From Alphaproteobacteria bacterium (GTDB lineage Bacteria; Pseudomonadota; Alphaproteobacteria; Sphingomonadales; Emcibacteraceae): a stretch of 55,633 bases of DNA. The notes beneath the pieces were generated by a model. That model did not search any database. It saw only the letters and a program-made list of their open reading frames with translations, and was not told the DNA's origin. Of this stretch, positions 2,589 through 42,425 are shown piece by piece. The translations under genes were made by a program, and so were the position numbers. Where the stretch lies: NCBI GenBank assembly GCA_020446675.1, contig JAGREE010000023.1, positions 1-55,633 on the forward strand, written 5' to 3'. Position 1 is the first letter of the stretch; each line of letters begins with the position of its first letter.

Positions 2589-2593
2589 AATTA

Positions 2594-2633
2594 TTGACAT
2601 AAACCGTTGTTCACATAATTGTTTATTGCAATA
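2594..2633 (+). promoter_or_regulatory. Possible promoter/operator region of glpQT
   Basis: The glpD-glpQ gap contains TTGACA at 2594-2599, a good -35 box, but only weak -10 candidates (CATAAT/AATTGT around 2614-2622). A perfect 10-bp palindrome TATTGCAATA follows at 2624-2633 and could be an operator. Assignment is tentative. Confidence 0.3.
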
Positions 2634-2683
2634 TGACTATATTCCATGCACTGTGATTTGAATAAATTCGGGAGAGTGGGATA

Positions 2684-3697
2684 ATGCGTTTATTTATATC
2701 AATTTTAGCTTTTATATTTGTATCCATGACAACAGCAATTGCCGCAGAAAAAATCGTCGTCGCACACCGTGGGGCAAGTGGTTATCTCCCTGAGCACACA
2801 ATGCCGGCAAAGGCGATGGCCTATGCCATGGGACCAGATTATATTGAGCAGGATGTTGTGATGACCAGGGATGACAGGCTGGTCGTTCTACATGATCATT
2901 TTCTTGATCAGGTCACGGATGTTCAGGAAAAATTTCCAAACCGCAAAAGGGCCGATGGTCGATATTATGTGATTGATTTTACCCTTGCAGAAATTCTGAC
3001 CCTTAATGTGTACGAGAGATATCATTTTGATGAAAACGGAAAAAGGGTGGCTTATTTCCCCGGGCGTTTCCCCCTTGGAAAATCTATTTTCAAAGTTCAT
3101 ACGTTAGAAGACGAAATTGAACTTATTCAGGGGCTTAATAAATCTACCGGGCAAAATATCGGCATTTATACGGAATCAAAAAGCGCCGCTTTTCACCTGT
3201 CCGAGGGAAAAGATTTAAGTAAAGCCATTCTGCAAACCTTTAAAAAATACGGTTATGACAGCAAGAATAGCAATGCATACTATCAGACCTTTGAATATGA
3301 TGATCTGAAAAGGGTTCACGATGAACTTCTGCCGGCTCTTGGCATGGATATTAAACTTGTCCAGCTTATGGGGGAAGAGGCCGACTATAAAGAAATGGTA
3401 ACAAGGGACGGGCTCAAAGCCTTATCAAATTATGCTGATGGTATTGGCCCGAGCATATCCATTATCACCAAGGCAGATGAAAGTGAAGCAGGCTATCATA
3501 TCACTGATCTGGTAAAGGATGCCCATGATGCAGGGCTTGTGGTTCATCCATATACATTTCGGGCGGAACATTTTGCGATGCCAAAATTTGTCGGAAGTTT
3601 GGATGAACTTTTGGACATTTTTTATAATAAAGTCGGGGTTGATGGCGTGTTCAGTGATTTTCCGGATCGTGCCGTCAGGTTTTTGCATAAAAAATAA
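2684..3697 (+). CDS. glpQ: Periplasmic glycerophosphodiester phosphodiesterase
   Basis: Hydrolyses glycerophosphodiesters to glycerol-3-phosphate plus alcohol in the periplasm. A Sec signal peptide covers residues 1-21 with likely cleavage after IAA. The catalytic GDPD signature AHRGASGYLPEHT begins at residue 27, followed by the EQD metal-binding pair and VVLHDHFLD, which carries the second catalytic His. At 337 residues it is close to E. coli GlpQ (358). The ATG at 2684 has GGGAGAG at 2670-2676. It sits 16 nt upstream of glpT, so the product of this enzyme would be imported by the next gene product. The GDPD fold runs to the C-terminal GVFSDFPD motif. Confidence 0.95.
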   Translation: MRLFISILAFIFVSMTTAIAAEKIVVAHRGASGYLPEHTMPAKAMAYAMGPDYIEQDVVMTRDDRLVVLHDHFLDQVTDVQEKFPNRKRADGRYYVIDFTLAEILTLNVYERYHFDENGKRVAYFPGRFPLGKSIFKVHTLEDEIELIQGLNKSTGQNIGIYTESKSAAFHLSEGKDLSKAILQTFKKYGYDSKNSNAYYQTFEYDDLKRVHDELLPALGMDIKLVQLMGEEADYKEMVTRDGLKALSNYADGIGPSISIITKADESEAGYHITDLVKDAHDAGLVVHPYTFRAEHFAMPKFVGSLDELLDIFYNKVGVDGVFSDFPDRAVRFLHKK

Positions 3698-3713
3698 AAA
3701 GGGGTGAGACATC

Positions 3714-5051
3714 ATGATTGGATTATTAAAACCAGCCGCACATATTGAACCCATTGATGAAAGTCGGGTTGATGATGAATATCGTCGCCTCAGGCTTCAG
3801 GTGTTCATCGGCATATTCATTGGCTATGCAGGATTTTATCTGGTCCGGAAAAATTTTACTCTGGCGATGCCGTCATTGATTGAGGAAGGGTTTACCAGAA
3901 CTGAACTAGGATTTGCCCTGTCCGGTGTTGCTATTGCTTACGGTGTTTCAAAATTTATTATGGGCAGCGTGTCCGACCGCAGCAATGCCCGCTATTTTAT
4001 GGCACTTGGCCTCATGGCATCTGCACTAACAATGATTATGATGGGAACGATGGCCTGGGCCACTAGCACAGTTGCTATTATGTTTACATTGCTGCTCATT
4101 AACGGCTGGTTTCAGGGCATGGGATGGCCACCGTCCGGCAGGGTGATGGTGCATTGGTTTTCACCGTCAGAACGCGGTACAAAAATGGCGATCTGGAATG
4201 TTGCTCATAATGTTGGCGGTGGCATGGTTGGAATATTGGCGATTTGGGGAATGAAGATTTTTAATGATTATCACTCGGTTTTTTATTTTCATGGCATGTT
4301 TGCCGTCGCGATTTCCCTGTTTATCCTTTATATGGTGCGTGATACACCGCAGTCACAAGGCTTACCGACAATCGAAGAATATCATCATAATTACCCGACA
4401 GCATTTGAATATAACAAAAATCATGAAAAGGAATTTTCGGCGAAAGAAATTTTTCTGGAATATGTTCTGAATAATAAATTACTTTGGGCAATTGCGGTGG
4501 CCAACGCCTTTGTTTATCTGGTCAGGTACGGCGTGCTTGACTGGGCCCCGACATATTTAAGCGAAGTAAAAGGGTTTTCATTTAATGAAAGCGGTATTGG
4601 CTATGCCCTTTATGAATGGGCCGGAATTCCGGGAACCATTATCTGCGGCTGGATTTCGGACAAATATTTTAATGCTCATCGTTCCCCCGTTTTGGTTATT
4701 TTTATGGCGATTACTATGGTGTGTGTGTTTATTTACTGGCTAAATCCGGCAGGTAATCCTGGCCTGGATATTGCCATGCTGGTTGCCATCGGATTTTTTA
4801 TATATGGTCCTGTTATGCTTATTGGTCTTTTTGCTCTCGATCTTGTGCCGAAAAAAGCGGCGGGTACCGCTGCAGGATTTACGGGTCTTTTTGGCTATGT
4901 CGGTGGAACGGTGTCAGCCAATATCGCCATTGGCTATGCTGTTGATAAGGCCGGATGGGATGCTGGATTTATGCTTATCGTCGGGTCATGCATTATTGCG
5001 ATCATCCTAGTCTCACTCACGATGAAGGCAGAAAGACACGCACGGAGCTAA
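3714..5051 (+). CDS. glpT: Glycerol-3-phosphate:phosphate antiporter
   Basis: Major facilitator superfamily permease of the organophosphate:Pi antiporter family, located in the inner membrane. It has 445 residues with about 12 hydrophobic segments. The signature GMGWPPSGRVMVHWFS, characteristic of GlpT/UhpT, is in the first half at about residues 135-150. The N-terminal cytoplasmic stretch leads into an R-K motif near the first membrane helix (FYLVRKNFTLAMPS), the region that includes the substrate-binding arginine in E. coli GlpT. Co-directional with glpQ, it imports the product of periplasmic phosphodiester cleavage for GlpD to oxidise. It converges on the reverse-strand sugar transferase with only 17 nt between stops and no clear terminator. 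Confidence 0.94.
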   Translation: MIGLLKPAAHIEPIDESRVDDEYRRLRLQVFIGIFIGYAGFYLVRKNFTLAMPSLIEEGFTRTELGFALSGVAIAYGVSKFIMGSVSDRSNARYFMALGLMASALTMIMMGTMAWATSTVAIMFTLLLINGWFQGMGWPPSGRVMVHWFSPSERGTKMAIWNVAHNVGGGMVGILAIWGMKIFNDYHSVFYFHGMFAVAISLFILYMVRDTPQSQGLPTIEEYHHNYPTAFEYNKNHEKEFSAKEIFLEYVLNNKLLWAIAVANAFVYLVRYGVLDWAPTYLSEVKGFSFNESGIGYALYEWAGIPGTIICGWISDKYFNAHRSPVLVIFMAITMVCVFIYWLNPAGNPGLDIAMLVAIGFFIYGPVMLIGLFALDLVPKKAAGTAAGFTGLFGYVGGTVSANIAIGYAVDKAGWDAGFMLIVGSCIIAIILVSLTMKAERHARS

Positions 5052-6951: not shown

Positions 6952-7479
6952 ATGTTTAAAAAATTATATATTGTACTTAGTGCTCTTGTCGTATCGACAT
7001 TTATAGCGGTAAGCGGTGCGCAGGCAGTTCCTGTAGACCCGAGCTTTTTTGATAGCTATAATAGAGACGTAAACGCACAATATGTCATTAATAATGGGTC
7101 TGCTATTAATGATTCATATGAATTTACTGCAACAGATTTTACAAACCTTAGTTTTGCTATCAGTGTGAACCACCCTACAGCATTAAATAACTTCGGTATT
7201 AAAAACCTAACCCTGACATGGGATCTTGGTGGCGTTCAATTTGTTACGGACAATTTAGGGAAGATGTTTACAAATCCATTTCCTGAATTTTTCCACGCTT
7301 TGACTAATCAAACTGGTACTTTGACTGTTACAGGTGACTTCCTGTCTAACGGTGGTGGGTATTCACTAACAGTGGCAGCTGTTCCACTTCCACCTGCTTT
7401 GATTGCCTTCTCAACTGCGATGCTTGGCGTTGGTTTCCTTGCTCGCCGCAGAAGAAAAACTAAAGCAGTATTTGCATAA
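6952..7479 (+). CDS. VPLPA-type PEP-CTERM sorting domain protein
   Basis: Small secreted protein, 175 residues, predicted exosortase substrate. A Sec signal peptide ends after the AQA at about residue 25. The C-terminus has the tripartite sorting tail: VPLPPA at residues 144-149, a hydrophobic helix to about 163, and a basic ARRRRKTK cluster at 164-171. The motif is VPLPP rather than the commoner VPLPA. The central region is rich in Asn, Thr, Ser and Phe with no recognised domain, as is usual for these proteins. The ATG is backed by GAGGAA at 6938-6943. It is monocistronic, with a sigma-54 promoter upstream and terminators downstream. It sits beside the locus encoding the matching exosortase, so it may be a matrix or surface protein released together with the polysaccharide. 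Confidence 0.88.
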   Translation: MFKKLYIVLSALVVSTFIAVSGAQAVPVDPSFFDSYNRDVNAQYVINNGSAINDSYEFTATDFTNLSFAISVNHPTALNNFGIKNLTLTWDLGGVQFVTDNLGKMFTNPFPEFFHALTNQTGTLTVTGDFLSNGGGYSLTVAAVPLPPALIAFSTAMLGVGFLARRRRKTKAVFA

Positions 7480-9654: not shown

Positions 9655-11241
9655 ATGGAATATTCTGAAGCAGAGTTAACATTAAGAGATTATTTCGCAA
9701 TATTAAAGCGGCGATATCTATTTTTGATAATTCCGTTTGTGCTTGTCTTAACGGTTAGTGTTGGTGTGGCTCTACTTATGGCGCCGGTTTACCAGTCAAC
9801 CGGTACAATTATGGTTGAATCGCAGCAGATACCGGATAACTTTGTTCAATCAACAGTCACCAGTTATGCAGATGAAAGAATTGGCGTCATTACCCAAAGG
9901 GTGATGATCCGTGAAAATCTTCTGAGAATTATTGATAAATTTAATCTGTTTGGGGATGACAGAAGAAGTATTCCGGCATCGGATCTGGTTGATCGGATGC
10001 GTAATATGGTTTCAGTGGAAATCATCAGTGCCGACGTTCAGGGACAGAAAAATAATGGGAAAACGGCTATTGCGTTTAGAATATCGGTTGAGCATAGCAA
10101 ACCTAATCTCGCTTTTAGTGTTGCCAATGAATTTGTAACACTTTTCCTGGATGAAAATGTCAGAAACAGAATTTCCCGTGCTTCGGAAACAACGGATTTC
10201 CTGAATAACGAAACGACAAAGCTTAAAAATCAGCTTGAAGATATTGAAAATCAGGTCGCCGACTACAAGCAGAAAAATAGCAGTGCACTGCCGGAGCATC
10301 TCGACCTGCGTATTAATCAGCGGGAGCGTGCTGTTCGGGCAGCAGAGGATATTGATCTTTCCATTAAAACGCTGGAATCGCAGAAAAGTCTGCTTGAAAT
10401 TGATCTGTCTTCAAGGACCTATAGTTCGGATAACGGTCAAAATGAAATTTCCGCCAATCCGGAACAGGAACTGGCTAAACTTGAAGCACAGTTGGCTGAA
10501 AAATCAACAATTTATGGTGACGCGCATCCGGATATTGTTTCTCTGAAAAGGAAAATCAGTCAGCTAAAAGAAAAAATAGCCGCCGGAGGTGATGATGCCG
10601 ACGGTTCACAGGAAATTGTCGGGGATCCGGTTGCCGCAAAAATACAGTCGAGAATTGCATCAATTGACGATACAATCAAATCTCAACTGGCACTTAAAAA
10701 AGAATTGGAACAAAATATTGCCGATCTGGAGAAAACCATAATCCAGACACCTCAGGTGGAAAGAGGGCTCAGGGCACTTAACCGAAATTACGAAAATGCT
10801 TTGGCGCAATATGAATCCATTAAAGCAAAACTTATGGATGCGCAGCTTTCTGAAAGTCTGGAAGAAGAAAAGAAAGCGGAACGTTTTCTGGTTCTTGAAC
10901 CACCTGTTCTTGCGGAAAAACCAATCCGTCCCAACAGACAGAAAATTATTATGCTGGGCTTTTTGCTCGCGGTCGCGGCAGGTGTTGGTGCCATATTCCT
11001 TATCGAAATGATTGATGGAAGCGTTTATGGCATGGCAAGACTTACTGAAGCAGTCCAGCAGCAACCGCTTGCCAATATCCCGTATATTGATACTTGGGAA
11101 GAGACAGCCCAAAACAAAAACCGAATTAAAATAATAGCCGGATTTTCTGTAGCCAGTATTGTTTGTGCGTTAGTTTTGGTGCATTTCTTATATTTACCGC
11201 TCGATATCTTCTTTTTTAAAGTTTGGTCGAGGATCAGTTGA
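9655..11241 (+). CDS. Chain-length determinant (Wzz/EpsF-like, GNVR type)
   Basis: Inner-membrane polysaccharide co-polymerase that sets chain length and links the kinase to the export channel. The 528 residues show an N-terminal Wzz domain with a membrane helix at about 20-42, a long periplasmic region with predicted coiled coils (about 180-310 and 340-410), a GNVR-like segment with TPQVERGLRALNRNYENA, the proline-rich P-x-x-P before the second helix (EKPIRPNRQKIIML, about 415), and an additional C-terminal helix at about 490-515. The ATG at 9655 follows the barrel gene by 14 nt. The kinase domain is a separate downstream gene, as in EpsF/EpsG pairs. Confidence 0.9.
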   Translation: MEYSEAELTLRDYFAILKRRYLFLIIPFVLVLTVSVGVALLMAPVYQSTGTIMVESQQIPDNFVQSTVTSYADERIGVITQRVMIRENLLRIIDKFNLFGDDRRSIPASDLVDRMRNMVSVEIISADVQGQKNNGKTAIAFRISVEHSKPNLAFSVANEFVTLFLDENVRNRISRASETTDFLNNETTKLKNQLEDIENQVADYKQKNSSALPEHLDLRINQRERAVRAAEDIDLSIKTLESQKSLLEIDLSSRTYSSDNGQNEISANPEQELAKLEAQLAEKSTIYGDAHPDIVSLKRKISQLKEKIAAGGDDADGSQEIVGDPVAAKIQSRIASIDDTIKSQLALKKELEQNIADLEKTIIQTPQVERGLRALNRNYENALAQYESIKAKLMDAQLSESLEEEKKAERFLVLEPPVLAEKPIRPNRQKIIMLGFLLAVAAGVGAIFLIEMIDGSVYGMARLTEAVQQQPLANIPYIDTWEETAQNKNRIKIIAGFSVASIVCALVLVHFLYLPLDIFFFKVWSRIS

Positions 11242-15271: not shown

Positions 15272-16666
15272 ATGTTATATGAAACCCAGTTTGAAAATAT
15301 CTTTGACGCCAATGATGATATTGATCTGAGTAGCTATGAGAAGCGTGTAAAAGAATTTTTAACCACGCTACGTGAAAAGCGTAAATATGGAAACAACAGA
15401 CGCAAATTTTTATACCCTTATCTTCAGCTTCCCAGTGAACGGGATGATCTGACGGAAATCCGCAGAACCGCTGACAGAATTTCAAAAAGATTTAAAGACG
15501 TTGTGGTGCTGGGAACCGGGGGATCGAGCCTTGGCGCACAAATGCTTGTCGCGCTTACCGGCGAGCAGATCTATGTGCCAAATGGCAAGGCGCGTATTCA
15601 CTTTCCTGATAATCTTGGCCCCCATACAATGCATCAACTGATTTCTGAGCTCGATCTCGGGAATACCCATTTTTTGGTCATTTCAAAGTCGGGCGGAACA
15701 GCAGAAACAATTGCCCAGATGTTGGCCTGTTTTTCTTATATGAGGGCGCTTGTTGGCGACAATGAAATTCAAAACCATTTTACGGTCATTGTGCAGCCGG
15801 GGAAAAGTTTCCTTCATGATTTTGCCGTTAAATGGCGATTGCCAATTCATTATCATGACCCGGATCTTGGGGGGCGTTTTTCTGTGCTTTCAATTGTCGG
15901 GCTGTTACCGGCCATGATCGTCGGACTTGATGTTGTTGCATTGCGTGATGGGGCACAACAGGTTCTCAACCGAATGATGAATGCCGAAAAAATTACTGAA
16001 ATGGCCCCGGCGATGGGGGCGATTGCCGTTTATGAATTACAGAAAAACCGTAATATCAATATCAATGTAATGATGCCCTATGAATGTCGGCTGACCGGAT
16101 TTTCAAATTGGTATAAGCAGCTTTGGGCGGAAAGCCTTGGCAAAAAAGGCAAGGGAACAACCCCTTTCAGTGCTCTTGGTCCCATGGATCAGCACAGTCA
16201 GCTTCAGTTATTTCTTGATGGACCGAATGACAAATACTTCACCGTTATCACCGTATCAAGCAAAGGTGAGGGACCAACCATCGATTCAATGCTGATAGAG
16301 GATAAAGATTTTTATTTTATGGCCGGATCAACCATTGGTGATCTGGTGGAGGCAGAAGCAGACAGCACAGTTGAGGCTCTTGGGGAGCGGGGAAAACCCA
16401 TTCGCCAGATAAAGATCCGTGAAATTAATGAGCGTATATTAGGGGCGCTGATCATGCATTTCATTCTGGAAACCATCATCACAGCAGAATTGCTTGGGGT
16501 AAATCCACATGACCAGCCATCTGTTGAATATGGAAAGAATCTGACCAAGGAATATTTGTCGAGACTACATAACGTTAATCAGACCATATCTGTTCCGGGT
16601 GCCAATATTTTGCCAAAAAAAGGGGCTAAGAAGGCGTCCTCAACAAATAAGGGGAAAGTTAAATGA
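15272..16666 (+). CDS. pgi: Glucose-6-phosphate isomerase
   Basis: Interconverts glucose-6-phosphate and fructose-6-phosphate in the cytoplasm. Motifs of the family are clear: LGTGGSSLGAQML near residue 78, FPDNLGPHTM, SKSGGTAET near 136, the FSNWYKQLWAESLGKKGKG catalytic stretch near 275, and PMDQHSQLQLFLDGP near 305. At 464 residues it is a short form (E. coli has 549). It overlaps galU by 4 nt (ATGA), so the two are translationally coupled and probably serve UDP-glucose supply for the polysaccharide. The C-terminal tail is Lys-rich. Confidence 0.94.
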   Translation: MLYETQFENIFDANDDIDLSSYEKRVKEFLTTLREKRKYGNNRRKFLYPYLQLPSERDDLTEIRRTADRISKRFKDVVVLGTGGSSLGAQMLVALTGEQIYVPNGKARIHFPDNLGPHTMHQLISELDLGNTHFLVISKSGGTAETIAQMLACFSYMRALVGDNEIQNHFTVIVQPGKSFLHDFAVKWRLPIHYHDPDLGGRFSVLSIVGLLPAMIVGLDVVALRDGAQQVLNRMMNAEKITEMAPAMGAIAVYELQKNRNININVMMPYECRLTGFSNWYKQLWAESLGKKGKGTTPFSALGPMDQHSQLQLFLDGPNDKYFTVITVSSKGEGPTIDSMLIEDKDFYFMAGSTIGDLVEAEADSTVEALGERGKPIRQIKIREINERILGALIMHFILETIITAELLGVNPHDQPSVEYGKNLTKEYLSRLHNVNQTISVPGANILPKKGAKKASSTNKGKVK

Positions 16667-17538
16667 AGCCGGTAAGAAAAGCCGTATTTCCGGTTGGCGG
16701 AATGGGAACAAGATTCCTGCCGGCAACAAAATCAATGCCCAAGGAAATGTTGCCGGTTGTTGATAAGCCGCTCATCCAATATGCGGTTGAGGAAGCAAGA
16801 GCAGCCGGAATTGAAGAAATCATATTTGTGACCGGGCGCGGTAAAGCCGCCATCGAAAATCATTTTGATCATTCCTATGAGCTGGAAGATATGCTGGCTA
16901 AGAAAAATAAAACGGAGATTCTGGATCAGCTAATCAATCTTCTGCCAAATGAAGGCAGTATTTCCTATACCCGTCAGCAGGAAGCCCTTGGGCTTGGTCA
17001 CGCCATTTACTGCGCCAAGAATATCGTCGGCAATGAACCATTTGCTGTGCTTCTTGCGGATGATCTGGTAAATTCTTCCACCCCCTGTCTTAAACAGATG
17101 ATAGACCTTTATAATGAAAAAGGCGGTAATGTTGTGGCGATTGAGGAGGTGCCGCGGGAAAAAACGTCAAGCTACGGAATTCTTGATGTTGCAGGAAGGG
17201 ACGGAAAAGTTATTGAAGTCAAGGGACTGGTTGAAAAGCCGGACCCAAAAGATGCGCCGTCCAATTTTTCCATCATCGGCAGATATATTCTGCAGCCGGA
17301 AGTCTTCAGCCACCTGGAGAAAAAAGTGATCGGGGCAGGCGGGGAAATCCAACTGACTGATGCCATGGCACAAATGCTGGGTCATATTCCGTTTCACGGC
17401 TTGCTTTTCGATGGTGAGCGCTTTGATTGCGGGGATAAAACCGGATTTATTTTGGCAAATATTGCTTTTGCAATGGCCCGTGAAGACATGCGGGACGGTA
17501 TCAAAGATTATTTGGCTAAGAATAAGGACAGACTTTAA
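16663..17538 (+). CDS. galU: UTP-glucose-1-phosphate uridylyltransferase
   Basis: Makes UDP-glucose from UTP and glucose-1-phosphate, the likely donor for the initiating sugar transferase and for glycosyltransferases here. The 291 residues equal the usual GalU length. The nucleotide-binding signature FPVGGMGTRFLPATKSMPKE is at residues 10-29, with KPLIQYAVEEA after it; the LADDL metal motif and VEKP motif lie at about 129 and 191. Its ATG overlaps the pgi stop. An 17-nt gap leads to the first PP-loop gene, so all belong to one transcript. Confidence 0.96.
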   Translation: MKPVRKAVFPVGGMGTRFLPATKSMPKEMLPVVDKPLIQYAVEEARAAGIEEIIFVTGRGKAAIENHFDHSYELEDMLAKKNKTEILDQLINLLPNEGSISYTRQQEALGLGHAIYCAKNIVGNEPFAVLLADDLVNSSTPCLKQMIDLYNEKGGNVVAIEEVPREKTSSYGILDVAGRDGKVIEVKGLVEKPDPKDAPSNFSIIGRYILQPEVFSHLEKKVIGAGGEIQLTDAMAQMLGHIPFHGLLFDGERFDCGDKTGFILANIAFAMAREDMRDGIKDYLAKNKDRL

Positions 17539-17555: not shown

Positions 17556-18767
17556 ATGTTCTTTATGGATTATATTGAAAAAATCAGAGAGAAAATTAAA
17601 AACCCGGAATCCGTAGAAATATTGACGGAGGATTTGATGTGGCAGCATCAGGGCCCCTTGCTATGGAAAGCGGATAGGTTTGATGGAATGCCCGCATTTT
17701 ATCCGGTTTATAAATATAAAGAGTATTATTCCTATTCGCCATTGGCGCTTATTCTTCATAAAAATAATCTCCATTTAAACCCTGCCGCCGTAAAAAAATT
17801 AAACTTAAAAGAGTTTATTTTGCTTGGCCATGACACACCCATTGATCTGGATATTGAACGAATTGGTGCTTCACATGGATTTACCAGGGAAATTACCGAT
17901 GCGGATAATTATTGCAGGATGCTGGTGGATGCAATCAAATTGGACATTGCCGAGATAGAAAAGCTTAACCCCGGTTTTGTAAATGTGATCATGTGTGGGG
18001 GCAAGGATAGTCTTAATCTTCTGTTGCTTCCCTGGAAAAATCCGGTTGTCGCCTATAGTGCGGAACCGAATTATCCGCTTGTCTGTGAATTTGTAAAAGC
18101 TAATAACCTTGATATAGAAGTCCATCGTCTGGAAGACAGTTTTGATGATGACTATCTGCAGGAGGAAATTGCCGAACTATGCTGCAGACTGGACACTGTC
18201 CATTGGCGTTGGGGGCATCACATTAAGAAAATATCCGATCAATATTCCAAAAAACTGATTATTTGGAAAGGTCAGATGGCCGATGCTTACTTCTCACCTC
18301 GGTGGAAGACCTATATTTATCCTGAAAATGAACCAAGGCTCTTTTTCTGTAAAGTTTATAAAAAGCTATCACCATTTCTGCCCATGTTTTTGTCCGTGCC
18401 ATTCGGACACTTGATCAGCAGGATGGTTGAGGATACAGTATGGACTAAAGGGGCAATTTCGCAGGGGGATCATATGGCCTTTATCAGGGCGTTAACGGAT
18501 ACCCTCGTATTATCGGCATATCATGGGAAAAATGTGCAAAAAGTCTTGTCATCAGTTGATCTGGCAAAAGCCGTTCAAAAAGATGTAAGAATGAAAATAG
18601 GGGAAATGCTTCACGGCAGGCCGGTTATATATCCATCCCATAACCCGTCGCCGAATTTGTCGGTATTTAGGGAAGGGGCATATAAGCCGGAGAAGTTTAT
18701 AGCTCTGCTTAAAAAACATGATGTGGATATTATCGCGCCAAAAGGGGTGCCAGGAAATGGTCACTGA
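17556..18767 (+). CDS. PP-loop ATP-pyrophosphatase-like protein, copy 1
   Basis: Unrecognised family of 403 residues with a PP-loop signature CGGKDS at residues 147-152 after a hydrophobic strand (NVIMCGGKDSLNLLLLP), as in adenylating amidotransferases and asparagine-synthetase C-domains. The N-terminal 110 residues are rich in aromatics (YKEYYSYSPLALI). A conserved WKGQMADAYF segment near 245 may correspond to the second nucleotide-site loop of asparagine synthetases. No glutaminase domain is present. The ATG at 17556 or that at 17565 could be used. It overlaps copy 2 by 11 nt. By eye the two copies share about half their residues. Possible role: amidation or aminoacylation of a sugar acid; not established. 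Confidence 0.75.
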   Translation: MFFMDYIEKIREKIKNPESVEILTEDLMWQHQGPLLWKADRFDGMPAFYPVYKYKEYYSYSPLALILHKNNLHLNPAAVKKLNLKEFILLGHDTPIDLDIERIGASHGFTREITDADNYCRMLVDAIKLDIAEIEKLNPGFVNVIMCGGKDSLNLLLLPWKNPVVAYSAEPNYPLVCEFVKANNLDIEVHRLEDSFDDDYLQEEIAELCCRLDTVHWRWGHHIKKISDQYSKKLIIWKGQMADAYFSPRWKTYIYPENEPRLFFCKVYKKLSPFLPMFLSVPFGHLISRMVEDTVWTKGAISQGDHMAFIRALTDTLVLSAYHGKNVQKVLSSVDLAKAVQKDVRMKIGEMLHGRPVIYPSHNPSPNLSVFREGAYKPEKFIALLKKHDVDIIAPKGVPGNGH

Positions 18768-19947
18768 CTATATTGAAAAACTAAGAACGAAAATTAAAGA
18801 CATCCGGCAGGTTCCATGCCTTACCGAAGAAATGGTATGGCATCATCATGATCATTATATCTGGCAGGCAGAAAAATTTGAAGGATTGCCGTCATTTTAT
18901 AATGTCTACCGGTATAAGGATTATTATTCATTTTCCATACTGGCGCTTATTGTGCTTAAAAATAATATGAAGCTTAATCAAACGGCTGTTGATACAATTT
19001 TTGCAAAAAATTTCGCAAATCACCCGGGAAATTACACCATTGATGAGGAAATCGTTAAAATTGGCGCCCCTCATGATTGTCGCTTTGACATAACCGATAT
19101 TGACGACTATTGCCAACTGACAGCAGAAGCCCTGAAAAAAGACATAAAAATAATCGAAGAGAAAAACCCCGGAAAAACGAATATCATCATGTGCGGCGGC
19201 AAGGACAGTATGAACCTGCTTTTGCTGCCGTGGCAAAATCCGGTCGTTGCCTTAAGTGCTGAGCCGAATTATCCGCTTGTTCAGGAATTTGTAAATAAGA
19301 ATAAACTGAATATTGATGTAATGAAGCTGGAAGACAGCAAGGACGAGGTCGAGCTTGATTATGAAGTCGTTGAAGCCTGTTGTCGGGCTGATCTGGCCCA
19401 TTGGCGATGGGGGGCGGATTTAAGAAAAATTGCGGAAACATATCAGCATGAAGCCATTATATGGAAAGGCCAGCTTGGGGACGTTTATTATACCAATGAC
19501 TGGAAAAATTTTATTACGCCTTATGTGGAACCGCAGCGGACATTCAGGCGACTTTATAAAAAATTCTCTTATCTCCTGCCGTTTTTTATAAATAAGAAAA
19601 TTGGTCACATTTTTCAGCCGATTGTCATCCGGCGGGTTTGGGAAGTCTGCAGCAGTCTTCAGGGCGGCCATATGTCATTTTTGCGGGGACTTATGGATAT
19701 GCTGGTATTATCCGCCTATCATGGACCAAATATGTCAGCGCTTATTCAGAAAGCCGATTTAGGTGCTTTGTGCCAGTATGATATCAGGCCGAAAATAGGA
19801 AAATTGCTTTTGGGTCGTGATGTTTATTATCCGGACAGCAACCCGACACCAAAAATGTCTGAGTTCAGAGCGGGATTACATTTACCGGAAAATTTTTGTC
19901 GACTTCTGGAACAGGCTGGTATTGAAGTTATCCGTTCGACCCAATGA
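18757..19947 (+). CDS. PP-loop ATP-pyrophosphatase-like protein, copy 2
   Basis: Tandem paralogue of the preceding gene, 396 residues from the ATG at 18757, which has AGGA at 18752-18755 and overlaps the first gene by 11 nt; an upstream in-frame ATG at 18718 lies deep inside copy 1 and would add residues copy 1 lacks. The PP-loop is CGGKDS at residues 146-151. Shared blocks with copy 1 include DYIEK at the N-terminus, NPVVA.SAEPNYPLV, AHWRWG/VHWRWG, IIWKGQ, and the C-terminal YYPDSNPTPKMSEFR/IYPSHNPSPNLSVFR region. Retention of the motif in both copies suggests two active enzymes or a heterodimer. Confidence 0.75.
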   Translation: MVTDYIEKLRTKIKDIRQVPCLTEEMVWHHHDHYIWQAEKFEGLPSFYNVYRYKDYYSFSILALIVLKNNMKLNQTAVDTIFAKNFANHPGNYTIDEEIVKIGAPHDCRFDITDIDDYCQLTAEALKKDIKIIEEKNPGKTNIIMCGGKDSMNLLLLPWQNPVVALSAEPNYPLVQEFVNKNKLNIDVMKLEDSKDEVELDYEVVEACCRADLAHWRWGADLRKIAETYQHEAIIWKGQLGDVYYTNDWKNFITPYVEPQRTFRRLYKKFSYLLPFFINKKIGHIFQPIVIRRVWEVCSSLQGGHMSFLRGLMDMLVLSAYHGPNMSALIQKADLGALCQYDIRPKIGKLLLGRDVYYPDSNPTPKMSEFRAGLHLPENFCRLLEQAGIEVIRSTQ

Positions 19948-19996: not shown

Positions 19997-20998
19997 ATGA
20001 ATAAAGATGATGCAACAGCAGTAAACAGCATGGTTAATAATGCAGGGGTTGTCATAATTGGGCGTAATGAGGGCCAGCGGCTGAATGCCTGCATTACGTC
20101 AGTTTTAAGAAGCGGGGCAAAACATATTGTTTATGTAGACTCCTGTTCTTCAGACGGTAGCGCAGAGCTGGCAAAATCCTTTAAAATTGATGTTATTGAG
20201 CTTGATGGTCAGTTTCCATTAACCGCCGCTCGGGCCAGAAATGCCGGTTTTAAGTTCCTAGATGAAACTGTTGAAGGGCTTAAATATGTGCATTTTATTG
20301 ATGGTGATTGTGAGATGGATGAAAATTGGCTTGGATCTGCGATTACGGCCTTTGATGTGTCGCCGGATGTTGCGGTTATTTGTGGCCGGCTACGCGAAAA
20401 ATACCGTGAAAAATCCCTTTATAACCGGCTTTGTGATATGGCCTGGTATATTAAGCCTGGTGAAATTAATTCCTGCGGCGGCATAGCCACTATAAGAGCT
20501 GATATTTTCCAGAAACATAATGGATTTAACACAAATCTGATCGCGGGCGAAGAGCCGGAATTTTATCATCGTCTTAGAAAAGCGGGACAGAGGATTTTGT
20601 GTCTTGATGCGCCCATGGGCTTTCATGATGCGGCCATGATGCACTATAAAGCATGGTGGATCAGATCGTTAAGAACCGGTTTTTCCTATGCTAATGCGGC
20701 GGAATGGGGCCGGTGGGCCAAAGAACGAAAAAGTTTTGTGATTTGGGGTGGCATTTATCCTCTTATCCTGATTATTATGTTCCTTCAATTCTGGCTGGCC
20801 GGACTTTTATTTCTTGCCCTGTTTCCAATACAGATAGTGAAAATTTATTTTGGGTTAAATATGCCCTATTCGTCCGGTGACAGATTATTATATGCTACAT
20901 TTTGCATGCTTGATAAAATTCCGGAATTTTTAGGATTTTTAAAGTATCACTACGTTAAGATCAGCGGAAGTAAGCAAAAGATCATTGAGTATAAATAA
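19997..20998 (+). CDS. Family 2 glycosyltransferase with C-terminal membrane helices
   Basis: Predicted inverting GT-A transferase adding a sugar to the lipid-linked repeat unit. The 333 residues have GVVIIGRNEGQRLNACITS near residue 17, a DSCSSDGSAELA nucleotide motif near 50, the HFIDGDCEMDENWL DxD-like motif at about 98-111, and an acidic ED/GEEPEF-type catalytic segment near 180. Two hydrophobic segments at about 250-290 should anchor it to the membrane. Acceptor and donor are unknown. It starts 49 nt after copy 2 of the PP-loop pair and precedes the acetyltransferase by 34 nt. Confidence 0.88.
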   Translation: MNKDDATAVNSMVNNAGVVIIGRNEGQRLNACITSVLRSGAKHIVYVDSCSSDGSAELAKSFKIDVIELDGQFPLTAARARNAGFKFLDETVEGLKYVHFIDGDCEMDENWLGSAITAFDVSPDVAVICGRLREKYREKSLYNRLCDMAWYIKPGEINSCGGIATIRADIFQKHNGFNTNLIAGEEPEFYHRLRKAGQRILCLDAPMGFHDAAMMHYKAWWIRSLRTGFSYANAAEWGRWAKERKSFVIWGGIYPLILIIMFLQFWLAGLLFLALFPIQIVKIYFGLNMPYSSGDRLLYATFCMLDKIPEFLGFLKYHYVKISGSKQKIIEYK

Positions 20999-21539: not shown

Positions 21540-22742
21540 ATGGCGCTTAAAGAGAAAAATATCGCCTATCTGGCGCCCGCTATTCCGGCATTGTCGGAAA
21601 CATTTGTCTATAATGAAATTTTTGCCCTGCGTGAACGTGGCTATAAAATATTTCCCCTGTCAATTCATAAACCAACGGACGTTTCAGAATCCGTTAGGGA
21701 AAAAATGGGCCCTGTTCATTATCTTTATAAGGATGGGGTGATTATATTTATCATTGCTTTTTTTCAATGTCTTTTCAGCAGACCGGTGGGAACTGTCAAA
21801 GCACTGGGACTTCTTATTTCAGATTTTTTTCAAGTTGGGGTTTTTAATCTTTCTGCATATAAGCTGATTTATCAGTTTTTTGCGGCCTGTCGGGCAGCGC
21901 GATTGTTCATTAAAAACGGAAGCAACCATGTTCATGTTCATTTTGCCAATGTGCCGTGTCAGGTCGCTATGTATGCTTCAGCAATCAGCAATATTCCCTT
22001 TACGGTGACATCACACGCCAATGATATTTTTGAACATGGACTTCTTTTAAAAAGAAAAGCGGAGCGGGCTAAATATTTTGTCACTATTTCAGATTTCAAC
22101 AGGCGCTTTTTAATGGAAATCGGTCTGCTTGCGGCCAAAATACGCATTGTGCGTTGCGGGGTAGATTTAAAATATGAAGGGGCGGAAAAGGAGACAAGCA
22201 ACAAAATCAGGCTTTGTTCCCTTGGTCGGCTTGTGGAAAAGAAAGGGATGCTGACCTTAATTGACGCTGTGGCAATTTTAAAGGAAAAGGGCAAGGCTGT
22301 CTCATTGTCCATTGCCGGTGACGGGCCGGAACGGGAACAGATTGAAAATAGAATTAATGAGAAAAATCTATCCGACTGTGTGGAAATGATCGGCGCACTG
22401 GACAATAAGGATGTCGGCCCGTGGATGGCAAAACATGATATTTTTGTCCTCGCCTGCCAAAAGGACAGAAATGGGGATATGGACGGTATTCCTGTCGTTC
22501 TGATGGAGGCCATGATGCTCGGTCTTTCAGTTATATCTACAAGAATATCAGGAATTCCCGAGCTGGTTATAAATGGCGAAACCGGCCTGCTTGTTGAGCC
22601 AAAAGATCCAGAGGCGCTGGCGGATGCAATCCTGAAACGTGACATTCAACAAAGTCTGATTGATAATGCGGCAAAACATGTTTTGAGCGAATTTGGCCGG
22701 GATGTTAATATTGACAGGCTGGAAACGCTTTTTAACGAATAA
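21540..22742 (+). CDS. Family 4 glycosyltransferase (WcaL-like)
   Basis: Retaining GT-B transferase, 400 residues. The N-terminal half begins NIAYLAPAIPALSETFVYNE, a start typical of colanic-acid WcaL-type enzymes; the C-terminal Rossmann domain has CSLGRLVEKKGMLTLIDA at about 222-239, SIAGDGPERE at about 258, and the donor-binding PVVLMEAMMLGLSVISTRISGIPELV E-x7-E stretch near 320. It sits in a tight run with the acetyltransferase and the next GT2. The sugar transferred cannot be told. Confidence 0.9.
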   Translation: MALKEKNIAYLAPAIPALSETFVYNEIFALRERGYKIFPLSIHKPTDVSESVREKMGPVHYLYKDGVIIFIIAFFQCLFSRPVGTVKALGLLISDFFQVGVFNLSAYKLIYQFFAACRAARLFIKNGSNHVHVHFANVPCQVAMYASAISNIPFTVTSHANDIFEHGLLLKRKAERAKYFVTISDFNRRFLMEIGLLAAKIRIVRCGVDLKYEGAEKETSNKIRLCSLGRLVEKKGMLTLIDAVAILKEKGKAVSLSIAGDGPEREQIENRINEKNLSDCVEMIGALDNKDVGPWMAKHDIFVLACQKDRNGDMDGIPVVLMEAMMLGLSVISTRISGIPELVINGETGLLVEPKDPEALADAILKRDIQQSLIDNAAKHVLSEFGRDVNIDRLETLFNE

Positions 22743-22751
22743 GATGAAACA

Positions 22752-23675
22752 ATGAGTTATTTAATAATATCCCCCTGCCGCAATGAGGCAAAATTTATGC
22801 GCCAAACGCTCGACAGCGTTGCACGACAAAGCATCTTGCCAGCAAAATGGGTTATTGTTGATGATGGATCAACCGATGAAACTGCGGAAATACTGGCGGA
22901 ATATGCAGGGAAATTTAAGTGGATTTCAGTGATCACCAAAGAAAACCGAGGGAGCCGTGCCGTTGGTCCCGGTGTGATTGAAGCCTTTTATAAAGGCTAT
23001 GACAGCATAAATCCCACCGATTTTGACTATATCTGCAAACTGGATATGGATTTGATCCTGCCCACTGATTATTTCAAAATTCTGATGGAAAAGATGGAAG
23101 AAAATCCAAGACTTGGCTGTTTCAGCGGAAAGCCCTATTATATGGATGGTGACAGGCAGGTCAGTGAAAAATGTGGTGATGAAATGTGTGTCGGGGCATC
23201 AAAATTTTACCGCAGACAATGTTTTGAAGAAATAGGGGGCTTTGTCCGCGAAGTTATGTGGGATGCGATAGATTGCCATCGCTGCCGATATCTTGGCTGG
23301 ATTGCCTGCAGCAGTGATGATCCAAATATCAGGTTTATCCATCTTAGACCAATGGGTTCAAGCCAGAATGGCATACTCACCGGCCGGATGCGTCATGGAT
23401 ATGGACAATATTATATGGGAAGCAGTATTATATATTTTATGGCAACCGCCGCATATAGAATGATGCGACCCCCTTATATTATAGGTGGGCTTGCAATGGC
23501 ATGGGGCTATTTAAGAAGTCTGCTTAAACGCAAGCCGCAACAATCAGACAGAGGATTGATTTCATTCATCAGAAAATACCAGCATCGGGCATTACTAGTT
23601 GGTAAGAAGCAGGCCGTTGACGAAATAAATGATGCAATGAAGCCAAAGTGGGAGCAGGCGCACCATGAAAGCTGA
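22752..23675 (+). CDS. Family 2 glycosyltransferase
   Basis: GT-A fold transferase, 307 residues. The N-terminal YLIISPCRNEAKFMRQTLDS leads to VDDGSTDETAEIL at about 36-48; a CKLDMDL metal-binding motif is near residue 96. A glycine-rich turn and a C-terminal amphipathic region (about 235-265) suggest membrane association. It has an unusual Cys-rich stretch (DCHRCRYLGWIACSSDD, about 175-191). It overlaps the GT26-STAS gene by 11 nt, implying coupled translation. Confidence 0.88.
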   Translation: MSYLIISPCRNEAKFMRQTLDSVARQSILPAKWVIVDDGSTDETAEILAEYAGKFKWISVITKENRGSRAVGPGVIEAFYKGYDSINPTDFDYICKLDMDLILPTDYFKILMEKMEENPRLGCFSGKPYYMDGDRQVSEKCGDEMCVGASKFYRRQCFEEIGGFVREVMWDAIDCHRCRYLGWIACSSDDPNIRFIHLRPMGSSQNGILTGRMRHGYGQYYMGSSIIYFMATAAYRMMRPPYIIGGLAMAWGYLRSLLKRKPQQSDRGLISFIRKYQHRALLVGKKQAVDEINDAMKPKWEQAHHES

Positions 23676-24759
23676 CCGTGATTTATATAATCTGTTGGGG
23701 TTAAGTTTTGATGCCGTAACTATGGAGGAAACGGCCACAAAAATAATTGAAGCTATTCGCGGCAGAAAAAAATTATTTTTATCGACACCGAACCTGAATT
23801 TCCTGATTGCCGGACAAGATGATGAAAATTTCAGAAAATCCGTTCTCCATTCTGATTTAAGTATCGCTGACGGCATGCCGATTGTGTTTATGTGTAAACT
23901 GCTTGATATTCCCATCAAAGAACGGGTTGCAGGGTCAAGTCTTATCGACTTTTTGAAATATGATGAACGTTGCCGGAAAAAGCCGATAAAGGTTTTTTTC
24001 TTTGGTGGTCAGGATGGCATAGCGGAAAAAGCCCACGATATTTTAAATGAAAAAAAATGCGGACTGGAAAGTGTCGGCTACCTGAACCCCGGTTTTGGCA
24101 CGATCGAAGAAATGAGCAGTGACGAAATCATAAATGAGATAAATGAAGCAAAACCCGACTTTATAATTGTTTCACTTGGCGCGAAAAAAGGCCAGGCATG
24201 GATTGAAAAAAATCGCGACAGGTTAAATGCATATGTGATCAGCCATTTGGGGGCGGTTGTTAATTTCATTGCCGGAAATGTTAAAAGAGCACCGGAATGG
24301 GTGCAGGGTTTACATCTTGAATGGGTATGGCGAATTAAGGAAGAACCTGAATTATTCAGCAGATACTGGAATGACGGTTGTGCATTTTTAATATTGATTT
24401 TTAAAAATATTTTACCTTACCGGTCCATTATCAAAAGACACACCACCCAGTCTACACCCTATATTTTGCCGGTTTTTAAGAAAAAGACCGTAATATTAAA
24501 AGGGGATTTGACGGTAGAAATCCGTGATAAGATCATCGTTATGTTTAACGAAATTCTAAAACGGGAAGGGGATTTTGAGCTTGATATGACGAAAGTCGGC
24601 TATATTGATCCGACAATTCTGGGTCAATTGATGCTATTTAATGAAGAAATGGAAAGCAAGGGGCATAACCTAACCCTGATAAATCCAAATAAATTAATCA
24701 AAAGAATTTTTCATCTTAATTGCCTGGATTTCAACGTCGGCACCAATAAAACAAAATAA
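23665..24759 (+). CDS. WecG/TagA/CpsF (GT26) glycosyltransferase fused to a STAS domain
   Basis: The first 240 residues are a GT26 enzyme, which usually adds the second or later sugar to an undecaprenyl-linked acceptor: TPNLNFLI near 34, SIADGMPIVF near 69, and GAVVNFIAGNVKRAPEWVQ near 196, then HLEWVWRI. After a linker with a hydrophobic helix, residues 273-364 form a STAS (anti-sigma antagonist) fold: VILKGDLTVEIRDKI, ELDMTKVGYIDPTILG, LTLINPN, LNCLDF. In SpoIIAA-type STAS the D-S-S-G motif carries the phosphorylated serine; here it is D315-P316-T317-I318, so phosphorylation at that site is lost. STAS fused to GT26 is unusual. Confidence 0.85.
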   Translation: MKADRDLYNLLGLSFDAVTMEETATKIIEAIRGRKKLFLSTPNLNFLIAGQDDENFRKSVLHSDLSIADGMPIVFMCKLLDIPIKERVAGSSLIDFLKYDERCRKKPIKVFFFGGQDGIAEKAHDILNEKKCGLESVGYLNPGFGTIEEMSSDEIINEINEAKPDFIIVSLGAKKGQAWIEKNRDRLNAYVISHLGAVVNFIAGNVKRAPEWVQGLHLEWVWRIKEEPELFSRYWNDGCAFLILIFKNILPYRSIIKRHTTQSTPYILPVFKKKTVILKGDLTVEIRDKIIVMFNEILKREGDFELDMTKVGYIDPTILGQLMLFNEEMESKGHNLTLINPNKLIKRIFHLNCLDFNVGTNKTK

Positions 24760-24873: not shown

Positions 24874-26454
24874 ATGAGTAATATTTCTGACACCACACAC
24901 CCCAATATAATCAGGCAGCATCCTGTGCAGTTTATTCTGCTTGGCGTCTCACTGTTTTTCAGTCTGGCGGCATTCAGTGGCGGATTATTAAACCAGTATG
25001 GGCGCTGGTTGACACAGGATGAATATAGCCATGGTTTTCTTATTCCCGCTATATCGCTCTGGATGCTGTGGGACAGAAGAGAGGCTCTGGCAGCCAGCAT
25101 TGGCAAGCCAATGTGGGCTGGATTTGCTGTAATTCTGGTCTCGGGTTTTATGCTTCTGGTCGGGGAACTCAGTGCCATTTTTATTCTGGTGCAGACGGGC
25201 TTTATTCTTTCGCTATTGGGCATCTCACTTGTATTTGGCGGCATGGCGTTATTGCGTCTGACAGCATTGCCAATTCTGTTTTTGCTTTTTGCAATTCCAA
25301 TGCCTTATTTTCTTGATTCCATCATGTCCTGGCGACTTCAGCTTATTTCTTCGGAACTCGGTGTATTTTTTATACGGCTAATGAGTATTCCTGTCTTTCT
25401 GGAAGGAAATGTGATTGATCTGGGCAGTTATAAGCTTCAGGTGGTGGATGCCTGTAGTGGCCTTCGATATTTATATCCGCTCACAAGTCTTGGCTTTTTG
25501 GTTGCCTATTTGTTTAAAGCGCCATTTTGGCAACGGGCGATTGTTTTTATTTCAACAGTACCGATTACCATTTTCATGAACAGTTTCAGAATTGGTATGG
25601 TTGGCGTCCTTGTTGAATATTGGGGTGGTGGCATGGCTGATGGTCTTCTGCATTATTTTGAAGGCTGGGTTATTTTTATGGCCTGTGCGGCTATCTTATG
25701 CGGTGAAGTCTGGCTGTTTACCAAATTCACAGATGGCGGTGATTTTTTTGAACTTTTCGATCTTCCGGAAATTGTCGCCAAACCCTTGAAGGCGAGTGAA
25801 AAGGGTGAAAATATTTTACCGATTGCCTTTACGGCCGGGTTTATGATTTTGGCGACATTTGGTATTTTAAATATCACGGATCGTCAGGAAATTGTGCCTG
25901 AGCGGATGAGGTTTGTGTCTTTCCCGAGCGAAATTGACGGCTGGGAATCAAGAAAAACGTATCTGGAGCCGAATGTGGAAAAGGCACTTGGGCTTGATGA
26001 TTATATTCTTGCTGATTACAGATCACCGATGCGCAGTATGCCGGTTAATCTTTATGTGGCCTATTATTCATCACAAAGAAAAGGGATATCACCGCATTCG
26101 CCACGGGTCTGTATCCCCGGTGGTGGATGGCTGATTACGGAGTTTGATCGTATTGAAATCAACGTTCGCGGACAAAGCGAGCCAATGCCGATTAATCGTG
26201 CTATAATTGAACGCGAGCGGGACCGACAGCTTGTCTATTACTGGTTTGATCAGCGTGGACATAAAATGTCGAATGAATATCTGATGAAATGGTATCTGGT
26301 TAAAGACGCCATTTTCAGAAACAGAACGGACGGATCACTTGTTCGTCTGACAACGCCAATTTTTGAAGGGGAAGAGGTTCAGGATGCCGAGAAACGGATA
26401 CAAACGTTTCTTGATGAAATCGCACCGGATTTACCCTCTTATTTGCCGAATTAA
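24874..26454 (+). CDS. xrtD: Exosortase with C-terminal EpsI domain (XrtD-like)
   Basis: Inner-membrane cysteine transpeptidase-like enzyme that recognises PEP-CTERM tails. The 526 residues hold an eight-helix exosortase domain with the catalytic triad visible as Cys194 (VVDACSGLRYL), Arg239 (MNSFRIG) and His260 (LLHYFEGW). Residues about 330-520 are an EpsI/DUF3485 domain (ISPHSPRVCIPGGGW). Fused exosortase-EpsI proteins of this size are the kind assigned to VPLPA-CTERM substrates (XrtD), matching the VPLPP tail of the 6952-7479 product. The ATG at 24874 has no strong ribosome site; a tiny frame (24864-24881) overlaps it. Subtype assignment is from memory of family traits. Confidence 0.85.
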   Translation: MSNISDTTHPNIIRQHPVQFILLGVSLFFSLAAFSGGLLNQYGRWLTQDEYSHGFLIPAISLWMLWDRREALAASIGKPMWAGFAVILVSGFMLLVGELSAIFILVQTGFILSLLGISLVFGGMALLRLTALPILFLLFAIPMPYFLDSIMSWRLQLISSELGVFFIRLMSIPVFLEGNVIDLGSYKLQVVDACSGLRYLYPLTSLGFLVAYLFKAPFWQRAIVFISTVPITIFMNSFRIGMVGVLVEYWGGGMADGLLHYFEGWVIFMACAAILCGEVWLFTKFTDGGDFFELFDLPEIVAKPLKASEKGENILPIAFTAGFMILATFGILNITDRQEIVPERMRFVSFPSEIDGWESRKTYLEPNVEKALGLDDYILADYRSPMRSMPVNLYVAYYSSQRKGISPHSPRVCIPGGGWLITEFDRIEINVRGQSEPMPINRAIIERERDRQLVYYWFDQRGHKMSNEYLMKWYLVKDAIFRNRTDGSLVRLTTPIFEGEEVQDAEKRIQTFLDEIAPDLPSYLPN

Positions 26455-37085: not shown

Positions 37086-38255
37086 ATGAGTGAGATGAAT
37101 AAAATACCTGCCGTCGTTATCGGGCTGGATATTAATGGTTTGGGGGTCTGTCGCTGGCTTCATCATGAAGGGGTGCCGGTCTATGCGCTGGATAATAATT
37201 TTTCCAGACCAAGTGGAAAAACATGGTCGGCAAAAAAGCATCTGATCCGTGATGTGGAGGGGGATGCGCTTATTGAAGATCTGATTGAATTTCGCGCGGG
37301 TCTAAATGATAACCCTGTTTTATTCATCACCATGGAAAAATCACTGCGGACTATTTCAGAGCAGAGGGAAAAACTTAAACCCTATTACCGGTTTAATATG
37401 CCGGATCATGACGTTCTGATGTCACTTATGAATAAGAACGGTGTTCTTGAGGTCGCGGAAAAAGCGGGAATTAGATACCCGAGAACATTAAAAATTACGG
37501 CCCCCGGTCTGATTGATGGCGCTAAAAATTTTAACTTTCCCTGCATTTTTAAACCGGCAGTTCAAAATAGCACATATGGTGATGAAATTAAAAAAGCATA
37601 TAAAACCAATTCATTACAGGAAATAAAAGATATTTATGCTGATATCAAAGACCGTATAAGTGATATGGTCATTCAGGAATGGATTGAAGGCACAGACAGC
37701 GATATTTATTTTCTGCTTGAATATGTGAATGGGGACGGCGAAGTGGTCGCTGATTTTCCGGGGCGGAAAGTCCGTTCATGGCCGCCGAATGTGGGGGGAA
37801 CGGCCAGCTGCACCAGTGCCTATGAACTACTGGATCAGATGCGCGAGGCAACAGGCAAATATTTTAAAGCCTGCGGATTTACCGGCATGGGCGGCATGGA
37901 ATTCAAGCGCGATAGCCGAACGGGCGAGCTTTTAATGATTGAGCCGACAGTGGCGCGCACCGATCTTCAGCATGAAGTGGCTATGATCCATGGGGTTAAT
38001 CTGGTTTATGCCCAATATTGTGCAGAAACGGGACAGGATTTTAGTTTGCCTGAGAGCAGGCAAGAGCAGAAAATATGGAAAGTTGATCCCATAAACCGCT
38101 ATTCACGGGAAACCCAGAATAGTGCAGAACAGGACGCAATTGAACAGAAATACCCGTCGGTTGAGGCCATTAAAAGAATTTCCGATCCTTTACCATTTAT
38201 ATATTATTTCTGCGCTAAAGTGGTCGACAAGATAAACCATATTTTAAAAAGATAA
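37086..38255 (+). CDS. ATP-grasp ligase (carboxylate-amine ligase-like)
   Basis: The 389 residues show an N-terminal Rossmann-like pre-ATP-grasp domain (PAVVIGLDINGLGVCRWLH at 8-26), then an ATP-grasp fold: CIFKPAVQNSTYGDEIKKAY near 153, MVIQEWIEGTDSDIYFLLEY near 193, and a metal-binding GMEFKRDSRTGELLMIEPTVAR stretch near 270. The usual E-x-N-x-R ends as EPTVAR, so the Asn is changed. Enzymes of this class join a carboxylate to an amine using ATP via acyl phosphate. In polysaccharide loci they may attach amino acids to uronic acids; here this is inference. It is 23 nt upstream of the toroid gene. Confidence 0.8.
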   Translation: MSEMNKIPAVVIGLDINGLGVCRWLHHEGVPVYALDNNFSRPSGKTWSAKKHLIRDVEGDALIEDLIEFRAGLNDNPVLFITMEKSLRTISEQREKLKPYYRFNMPDHDVLMSLMNKNGVLEVAEKAGIRYPRTLKITAPGLIDGAKNFNFPCIFKPAVQNSTYGDEIKKAYKTNSLQEIKDIYADIKDRISDMVIQEWIEGTDSDIYFLLEYVNGDGEVVADFPGRKVRSWPPNVGGTASCTSAYELLDQMREATGKYFKACGFTGMGGMEFKRDSRTGELLMIEPTVARTDLQHEVAMIHGVNLVYAQYCAETGQDFSLPESRQEQKIWKVDPINRYSRETQNSAEQDAIEQKYPSVEAIKRISDPLPFIYYFCAKVVDKINHILKR

Positions 38256-42245: not shown

Positions 42246-42425
42246 ATTTATCAACACATTATTGTAATATATTAATGCAATACTTTAATAACAATTCGTC
42301 TTGATTATTAAAAATTCAGCTTCATTCAGTCTAGCGCAGCATTGGCTTTTTGCAAGTGAAAGAGTGTATTGACTTATTGATTATGAACTGTAGGAATAAG
42401 GAATAAAAATCAGGGAGGCCGGACG

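What the first reader, a model, noticed from the sequence alone, without database searches (positions are those of the whole stretch)
17556..19947. Tandem PP-loop enzymes of an unrecognised family inside the polysaccharide operon
Two overlapping paralogues, about half identical by eye, both keep CGGKDS and a downstream IIWKGQ block, but neither has a glutaminase domain. Exosortase A loci often encode asparagine-synthetase-like amidotransferases; this pair may be a divergent counterpart that uses free ammonia, an amino-sugar or another amine. Retention of both motifs suggests a heterodimer or two steps.
Basis: partly seen in the sequence, partly recalled or inferred. Interest (0 to 1): 0.75.

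Follow-up and report, generated by a model that had tools for sequence, protein, structure and literature searches.

The report
Twin glutaminase-less asparagine-synthetase-like polysaccharide enzymes
Two overlapping genes in a bacterial surface-polysaccharide operon encode a protein family that no library searched here names; it is predicted to be built like asparagine synthetase, has a shortened front part without the glutamine-splitting cysteine, and would likely link an amine to a building block of the polysaccharide.

The parts
17556..18767 (+). Paralogue A (P0001, 403 aa): AsnB/beta-lactam-synthetase-class PP-loop protein
18757..19947 (+). Paralogue B (P0002, 396 aa): same family, 11-nt overlap with A
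17994..18011 (+). PP-loop CGGKDS of copy A
19192..19209 (+). PP-loop CGGKDS of copy B; G, G, D, S invariant in 116 proteins
18264..18275 (+). WKGQ of copy A, by strand order at the place of the AsnB GEGxDE loop
19462..19473 (+). WKGQ of copy B, by strand order at the place of the AsnB GEGxDE loop
17646..17870 (+). Probable glutaminase-domain remnant, copy A (residues 31-105)
   Evidence: by homology with copy B; model
18844..19068 (+). Probable glutaminase-domain remnant, copy B (residues 30-104)
   Evidence: ungapped profile diagonal at offset 100, z 5.44
16663..17538 (+). GalU, upstream boundary of the variable block
   Evidence: TIGR01099 364.2 bits
19997..20998 (+). Glycosyltransferase family 2, present in the five XrtD loci of the genus that cover this place
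   Evidence: PF00535
21033..21536 (+). EpsC/CysE-like hexapeptide acetyltransferase, part of the co-varying module
   Evidence: NF041874 115.8 bits, below its cut-off of 150
21540..22742 (+). EpsE-like GT4 glycosyltransferase, part of the module
   Evidence: NF041876 177.5 bits, below its cut-off of 400; PF00534
22752..23675 (+). GT2 glycosyltransferase, part of the module; 56-59% identical neighbour in four other lineages
23665..24759 (+). WecG/TagA/CpsF glycosyltransferase, downstream boundary of the variable block
24874..26454 (+). Exosortase XrtD with fused EpsI domain
   Evidence: TIGR04152 569.8 bits, TIGR02914 137.6 bits

Best explanation
The two genes encode intact paralogues of a family that is predicted to share the fold of asparagine synthetase B and beta-lactam synthetase, lacks the catalytic cysteine and about 120 residues in front of the PP-loop, and would likely activate a carboxylate with ATP (releasing pyrophosphate) and join it to an amine carried by the substrate. 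Shown: the genes, the duplication, the intact PP-loop, the conservation, and the co-variation with two glycosyltransferases and an acetyltransferase. Predicted: the fold. Inferred: that the PP-loop binds ATP, and that the product is an amide on a sugar or sugar precursor of the repeat unit, made with the amine of an amino sugar or amino acid rather than with glutamine-derived ammonia, as beta-lactam synthetase, carbapenam synthetase and lasso cyclases do in other pathways (recalled). Copies A and B would be two specificities or two subunits of one enzyme; the data do not say which.
Against: Full-length profile comparison with AsnB proteins found nothing significant (hhalign probability about 1%), and none of 48 members matches PF00733. 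The WKGQ stretch does not align significantly with GEGxDE: its best diagonal is another one, which 66 of 500 shuffles reach, and the collinear one ranks third; residues 70-104 taken alone prefer another diagonal by a hair. If WKGQ does align there, the first acidic residue becomes Gln, the Glu of the Glu-Tyr dyad becomes Val/Leu and the Tyr becomes variable, so the chemistry on the acid may differ. The Asp of that loop is missing in 17 of 116. Four of 19 loci show none of the window's polysaccharide genes. The GT2 is far more widespread than the family (at least 7997 relatives at E 1e-30; a 19.9-kb stretch of G308 has the GT2 at about 61% but no family member). None of the 11 operon proteins scanned is a sugar dehydrogenase or aminotransferase.
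Confidence: 0.5

Rival explanations
1. Free-ammonia amidotransferase: the pair would turn a uronic acid of the repeat unit into its primary amide, a WbpS-like job done without glutamine.
For: AsnB-type WbpS makes a uronamide, and AsnB proteins of its group occur beside exosortase genes (PMC7468200, passages); PesC accepts ammonia in place of glutamine (PMC13060819, passages). One sugar-nucleotide dehydrogenase domain over the cut-off lies elsewhere in the genome (PF03721, 129.6 bits).
Against: No sugar dehydrogenase among the 11 operon proteins scanned. Loss of the glutamine site together with changed catalytic residues is more typical of AsnB relatives that use a substrate amine (recalled).
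Confidence: 0.25
2. Partner-fed amidotransferase: ammonia would be delivered by a separate glutaminase or by the genome's full-length AsnB (L022).
For: The genome holds one strong PF00733 match (335.5 bits, 628-aa ORF with an N-terminal Cys). Some PP-loop systems use separate glutaminase subunits (recalled).
Against: No glutaminase among the 11 operon proteins scanned; the AsnB lies on another contig.
Confidence: 0.08
3. AsnB-like scaffold with other chemistry: the proteins would bind ATP but do a different reaction (nitrile formation, adenylyl transfer) or act as regulators.
Against: Conservation over the whole length (54 columns at 95% or more) and co-variation with glycan genes speak for an enzyme of the glycan pathway.
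Confidence: 0.17

Closest known systems
Beta-lactam synthetase and carbapenam synthetase (1m1z, 1jgt, 1q15, 1q19)
   Same: Predicted fold over most of the chain, PP-loop; no glutaminase activity (recalled)
   Different: 7-13% identity in the structural alignments; shorter N-domain; C-terminal motif DxR...YPxxNPxP, which I do not recall from these enzymes; no beta-lactam setting
Asparagine synthetase B (1ct9) and the exosortase-associated AsnB group (TIGR03108, WbpS)
   Same: Predicted fold; probable shared end of the glutaminase domain; polysaccharide setting
   Different: No catalytic Cys; about 120 residues fewer before the PP-loop; GEGxDE place reads GQxGD; no PF00733 match in 48 of 48 members
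TsnB9 hydroxyamidotransferase (7ylz) and PesC nitrile synthetase
   Same: TsnB9: fold match; PesC: AsnB-like enzyme with an altered outcome (PMC13060819 only)
   Different: TsnB9 chain has 576 residues against 396-403; PesC acts on a peptide
EpsC, EpsD, EpsE of the Myxococcus xanthus EPS locus
   Same: Acetyltransferase and GT4 of the module match the EpsC and EpsE models, below the curated cut-offs; [quoted passage not shown]
   Different: Whether Myxococcus has the PP-loop family was not tested

Membership tests
Asn_synthase, PF00733 | Sequence match to the family model | tested here: not met
   No match for P0001 and P0002 with the limit at E 10; not among the 13 families matched by any of 48 members at E up to 1
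AsnB / beta-lactam synthetase structural class | Overall fold of N-domain plus PP-loop synthetase domain | tested here: met
AsnB / beta-lactam synthetase structural class | PP-loop S-G-G-x-D-S | tested here: met
   Present as CGGxDS: G, G, D, S invariant, first Ser is Cys in 114 of 116
Glutamine-dependent AsnB | N-terminal nucleophile Cys and glutamine site | tested here: not met
   P0001 starts MFF, P0002 MVT; 113 of 116 rows lack Cys at residue 2, and the three with it are only 376-414 aa long
AsnB catalysis | Glu and Tyr of the GEGxDE...Y loop | tested here: inconclusive
   At offset 125 they read Val/Leu and a variable residue, but that local alignment is not significant
AsnB / beta-lactam synthetase class | ATP to AMP + PPi and amide formation | not testable with these tools
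   Needs biochemistry
WbpG / ExsB / QueC PP-loop families | Closest fold | tested here: inconclusive
   Not listed by these names among the 50 entries shown; absence from that list excludes nothing

The most novel reading that the evidence does not exclude
A two-gene AsnB-derived ligase that couples an amino acid, possibly the serine handled by the neighbouring CysE/EpsC-like acetyltransferase, to a sugar of a secreted polysaccharide: a route to aminoacylated glycans beside VimA/FemAB-type transferases, spread over several phyla.
Probability: 0.12. Interest if true: 0.8.

Novelty: new variant of a known kind. Interest (0 to 1): 0.52.

Why it matters
It adds a branch to the asparagine-synthetase class that the sequence libraries searched here do not recognise, with a cut-down glutaminase domain and apparently changed acid-binding residues, found in loci of several phyla. 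It gives a concrete, deletable pair of genes for asking which non-sugar group decorates these exopolysaccharides, and points to a likely new amide-forming activity.

Tried and rejected
Sequence routes to a name failed: Pfam, NCBIfam, PADLOC and PHROGs gave nothing meaningful; PDB by sequence gave nothing for P0001 and one designed binder at E 0.021 for the A3 profile. Full-length hhalign against ten AsnB proteins failed, so the class rests on predicted structure plus the two significant ungapped diagonals. The AsnB set came from one genus and is small.

How much of the glutaminase domain is left is not settled. The diagonal puts residues 30-104 on AsnB residues 130-204, whereas the structural alignments begin at residues 5-32 of the known chains (class rows), so the first ~30 residues may match the start of that domain.

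A role in exosortase sorting itself (a linking sugar, as discussed in PMC7468200) was set aside: two XrtD loci of the genus lack the module, and L006, L007, L011 and L016 showed neither XrtD nor the other window genes tested.

An exclusive pairing with the GT2 at 22752-23675 was rejected: that GT2 family is very large, and a stretch of G308 has it without a family member.

One dead subunit in a heterodimer: not supported, since both copies keep all 54 conserved columns.

Plasmid search: no match. Class survey: 1 of 385 alphaproteobacterial genomes, the own one, with at most four candidates scored per genome; relatives: 4 of 60, own included. Seven paper searches: no listed title or abstract treats this family; lists were capped (8 of 317 papers) and subscription literature is mostly not held. 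No two-chain model and no superposition on the AsnB active site could be made.

Rows: A1 used P0001, P0002 and 33 of the 120 listed hits (132 found); A3 used 48 proteins; the 116-row set is 122 proteins on hand minus 6 outside 340-450 aa and holds P0021, a near-copy of P0001. The 19 loci include three from one genome (L004, L006, L007). One search printed the conserved-column counts of 13 of the 20 rows of the two clades: 12 keep 54, P0026 keeps 53.

Full report
What is there. Two co-directional genes, 17556-18767 and 18757-19947, overlap by 11 nt between galU (16663-17538) and a family 2 glycosyltransferase (19997-20998). The proteins (403 and 396 aa) are 50% identical over 389 residues without a gap. 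With the limit at E 10, Pfam gave one weak unrelated hit for copy A and none for copy B, NCBIfam none. The own genome has only these two copies. A search of 5.8 billion proteins found 132 hits to copy B at E up to 1e-3, window proteins included; the 120 listed carry no Pfam domain.

Conservation. In 116 full-length proteins, 54 columns are at least 95% conserved; 71 of the 116 keep all of them, and both window copies do. The PP-loop reads C-G-G-K/R-D-S with G, G, D and S invariant and Cys in 114. The second block is W-K-G-Q-x-G/A-D: W and G 116, K 109, Q 110, D 99 of 116. A C-terminal stretch D-x-R...Y-P-x-x-N-P-x-P-x-x-S-x-x-R is also nearly invariant.

The shortened front. AsnB-type proteins of the same genus were collected and ten aligned. 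Full-length hhalign failed. An ungapped profile-profile scan put family residues 44-104 on AsnB residues 144-204 as the best of all diagonals (z 5.29; 0 of 500 column shuffles reached it) and the PP-loop on SGGVDS at residues 265-270 (z 5.11; 5 of 500). The WKGQ stretch is not significant: offset 125 ranks third, and 66 of 500 shuffles reach the best. The C-terminal stretch prefers offset 197, for which no shuffle test was run. The offsets 100, 119, 125, 197 are collinear. So the family is about 120 residues shorter than AsnB before the PP-loop and, as the starts of both proteins show, lacks the catalytic Cys. The structural alignments begin near the start of the known chains, so the first ~30 residues may still match the start of the glutaminase domain; how the domain was shortened is open.

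Catalytic residues. A recent preprint reports that a Glu and a Tyr are conserved in five AsnB-like enzymes; in PesC the Tyr-to-Phe change abolished activity and the Glu-to-Ala change lowered it (PMC13060819, section 10). By spacing these should be E368 and Y373 of the genus AsnB (inference). At offset 125 the family has Val/Leu and a variable residue there, and Gln for the first acidic residue of the loop. ATP binding is well supported by conservation; the acid-handling part seems rebuilt. This is the main reason for moderate confidence in amide formation.

Genomic setting. The window carries a polysaccharide locus with exosortase XrtD, not XrtA. In 13 genomes of the genus the exosortase is in 6. 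The GT2 at 22752-23675 has strong matches in 4 and one 28% partial match in G004. The PP-loop family is in the same 4, in G006 only as two fragments at a contig end. The loci of G004 and G008 run GalU, GT2(19997), WecG, XrtD without the module. Where it is present in one contig (G000, G009, G010), PP-loop genes lie before GT2(19997) and acetyltransferase-GT4-GT2 after it; in G006 the GT4 and GT2 are seen but the place of the acetyltransferase is not covered. G010 has three tandem PP-loop genes, G009 one in the locus and two elsewhere.

Wider setting. Of 19 loci from species genomes, six have the GT2 at 56-77% identity: two from the window's genus and one each from a Burkholderiales MAG, Pseudoalteromonas, a Planctomycetota MAG and Oceaniovalibus, in same-strand, convergent and divergent arrangements. 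The acetyltransferase is adjacent in the Pseudoalteromonas and Planctomycetota loci. Four loci (L006, L007, L011, L016) show none of the 24 other window genes tested. Several loci are cut by contig ends and none was read beyond 10 kb each way, so absences are soft. The GT2 family itself is huge, so the PP-loop family is an occasional addition to such loci, not their core.

Two copies. The tree puts ten rows with copy A and ten with copy B in two supported clades (SH-aLRT 98 and 99; joined at 80), and G010 has both kinds, so the duplication is older than the split of these two genomes. By equal contig length, A and B rows share contigs in three cases besides the window (476556, which is G010, 7628 and 26645 bases). 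Only two positions separate the clades cleanly. Both are probably active; a heterodimer or two specificities fits equally.

Mechanism. The most likely mechanism is ATP-dependent adenylation of a carboxylate and capture by an amine of the substrate, giving an amide on a precursor of the repeat unit that the module's glycosyltransferases use. PP-loop, predicted fold and co-variation are evidence; substrate, amine and product are inference. The module's acetyltransferase is EpsC/CysE-like; [quoted passage not shown] WbpS shows that AsnB-type enzymes do modify sugar acids (PMC7468200, passages).

Verdict. A real, unnamed, widespread but sparse branch of the AsnB class by predicted structure. It works, most likely, like a substrate-amine ligase of that class; by sequence test it is not a member of PF00733.

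Noticed in passing
24874-26454 and 6952-7479: Exosortase is XrtD with a fused EpsI domain; a small protein upstream ends in VPLPPAL...RRRRK, by eye a VPLPA-CTERM target.
   Followed up: partly
23665-24759: WecG/TagA/CpsF glycosyltransferase with a C-terminal STAS domain (PF13466, 31.3 bits, cut-off 29.2), a fusion I do not recall from elsewhere.
   Followed up: no
37086-38255: By eye ATP-grasp-like protein (27.3 bits to a carbamoyl-phosphate-synthase-like model, cut-off 218) without a Pfam match at E 1e-4, after the rhamnose genes; could be another ligase of the glycan.
   Followed up: no
38279-39490: Protein with weak matches to squalene-hopene cyclase C-terminal and glucuronyl C5-epimerase C-terminal domains.
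   Followed up: no
L006:9998-11170 and L007:9980-11167: Two single family members away from the polysaccharide locus in the Emcibacteraceae MAG OFTM144, besides the one in its XrtD locus.
   Followed up: partly
L010:1795-3308 and 9977-11188: Planctomycetota MAG with a family member, acetyltransferase, GT2 and an exosortase with an EpsI-type (DUF3485) partner in one stretch.
   Followed up: partly
1107-5051 and 40767-42257: Glycerol-3-phosphate genes (by eye GlpD, GlpQ, GlpT, GlpK) flank the polysaccharide locus; homologues of the first three also lie beside the locus in G008.
   Followed up: no
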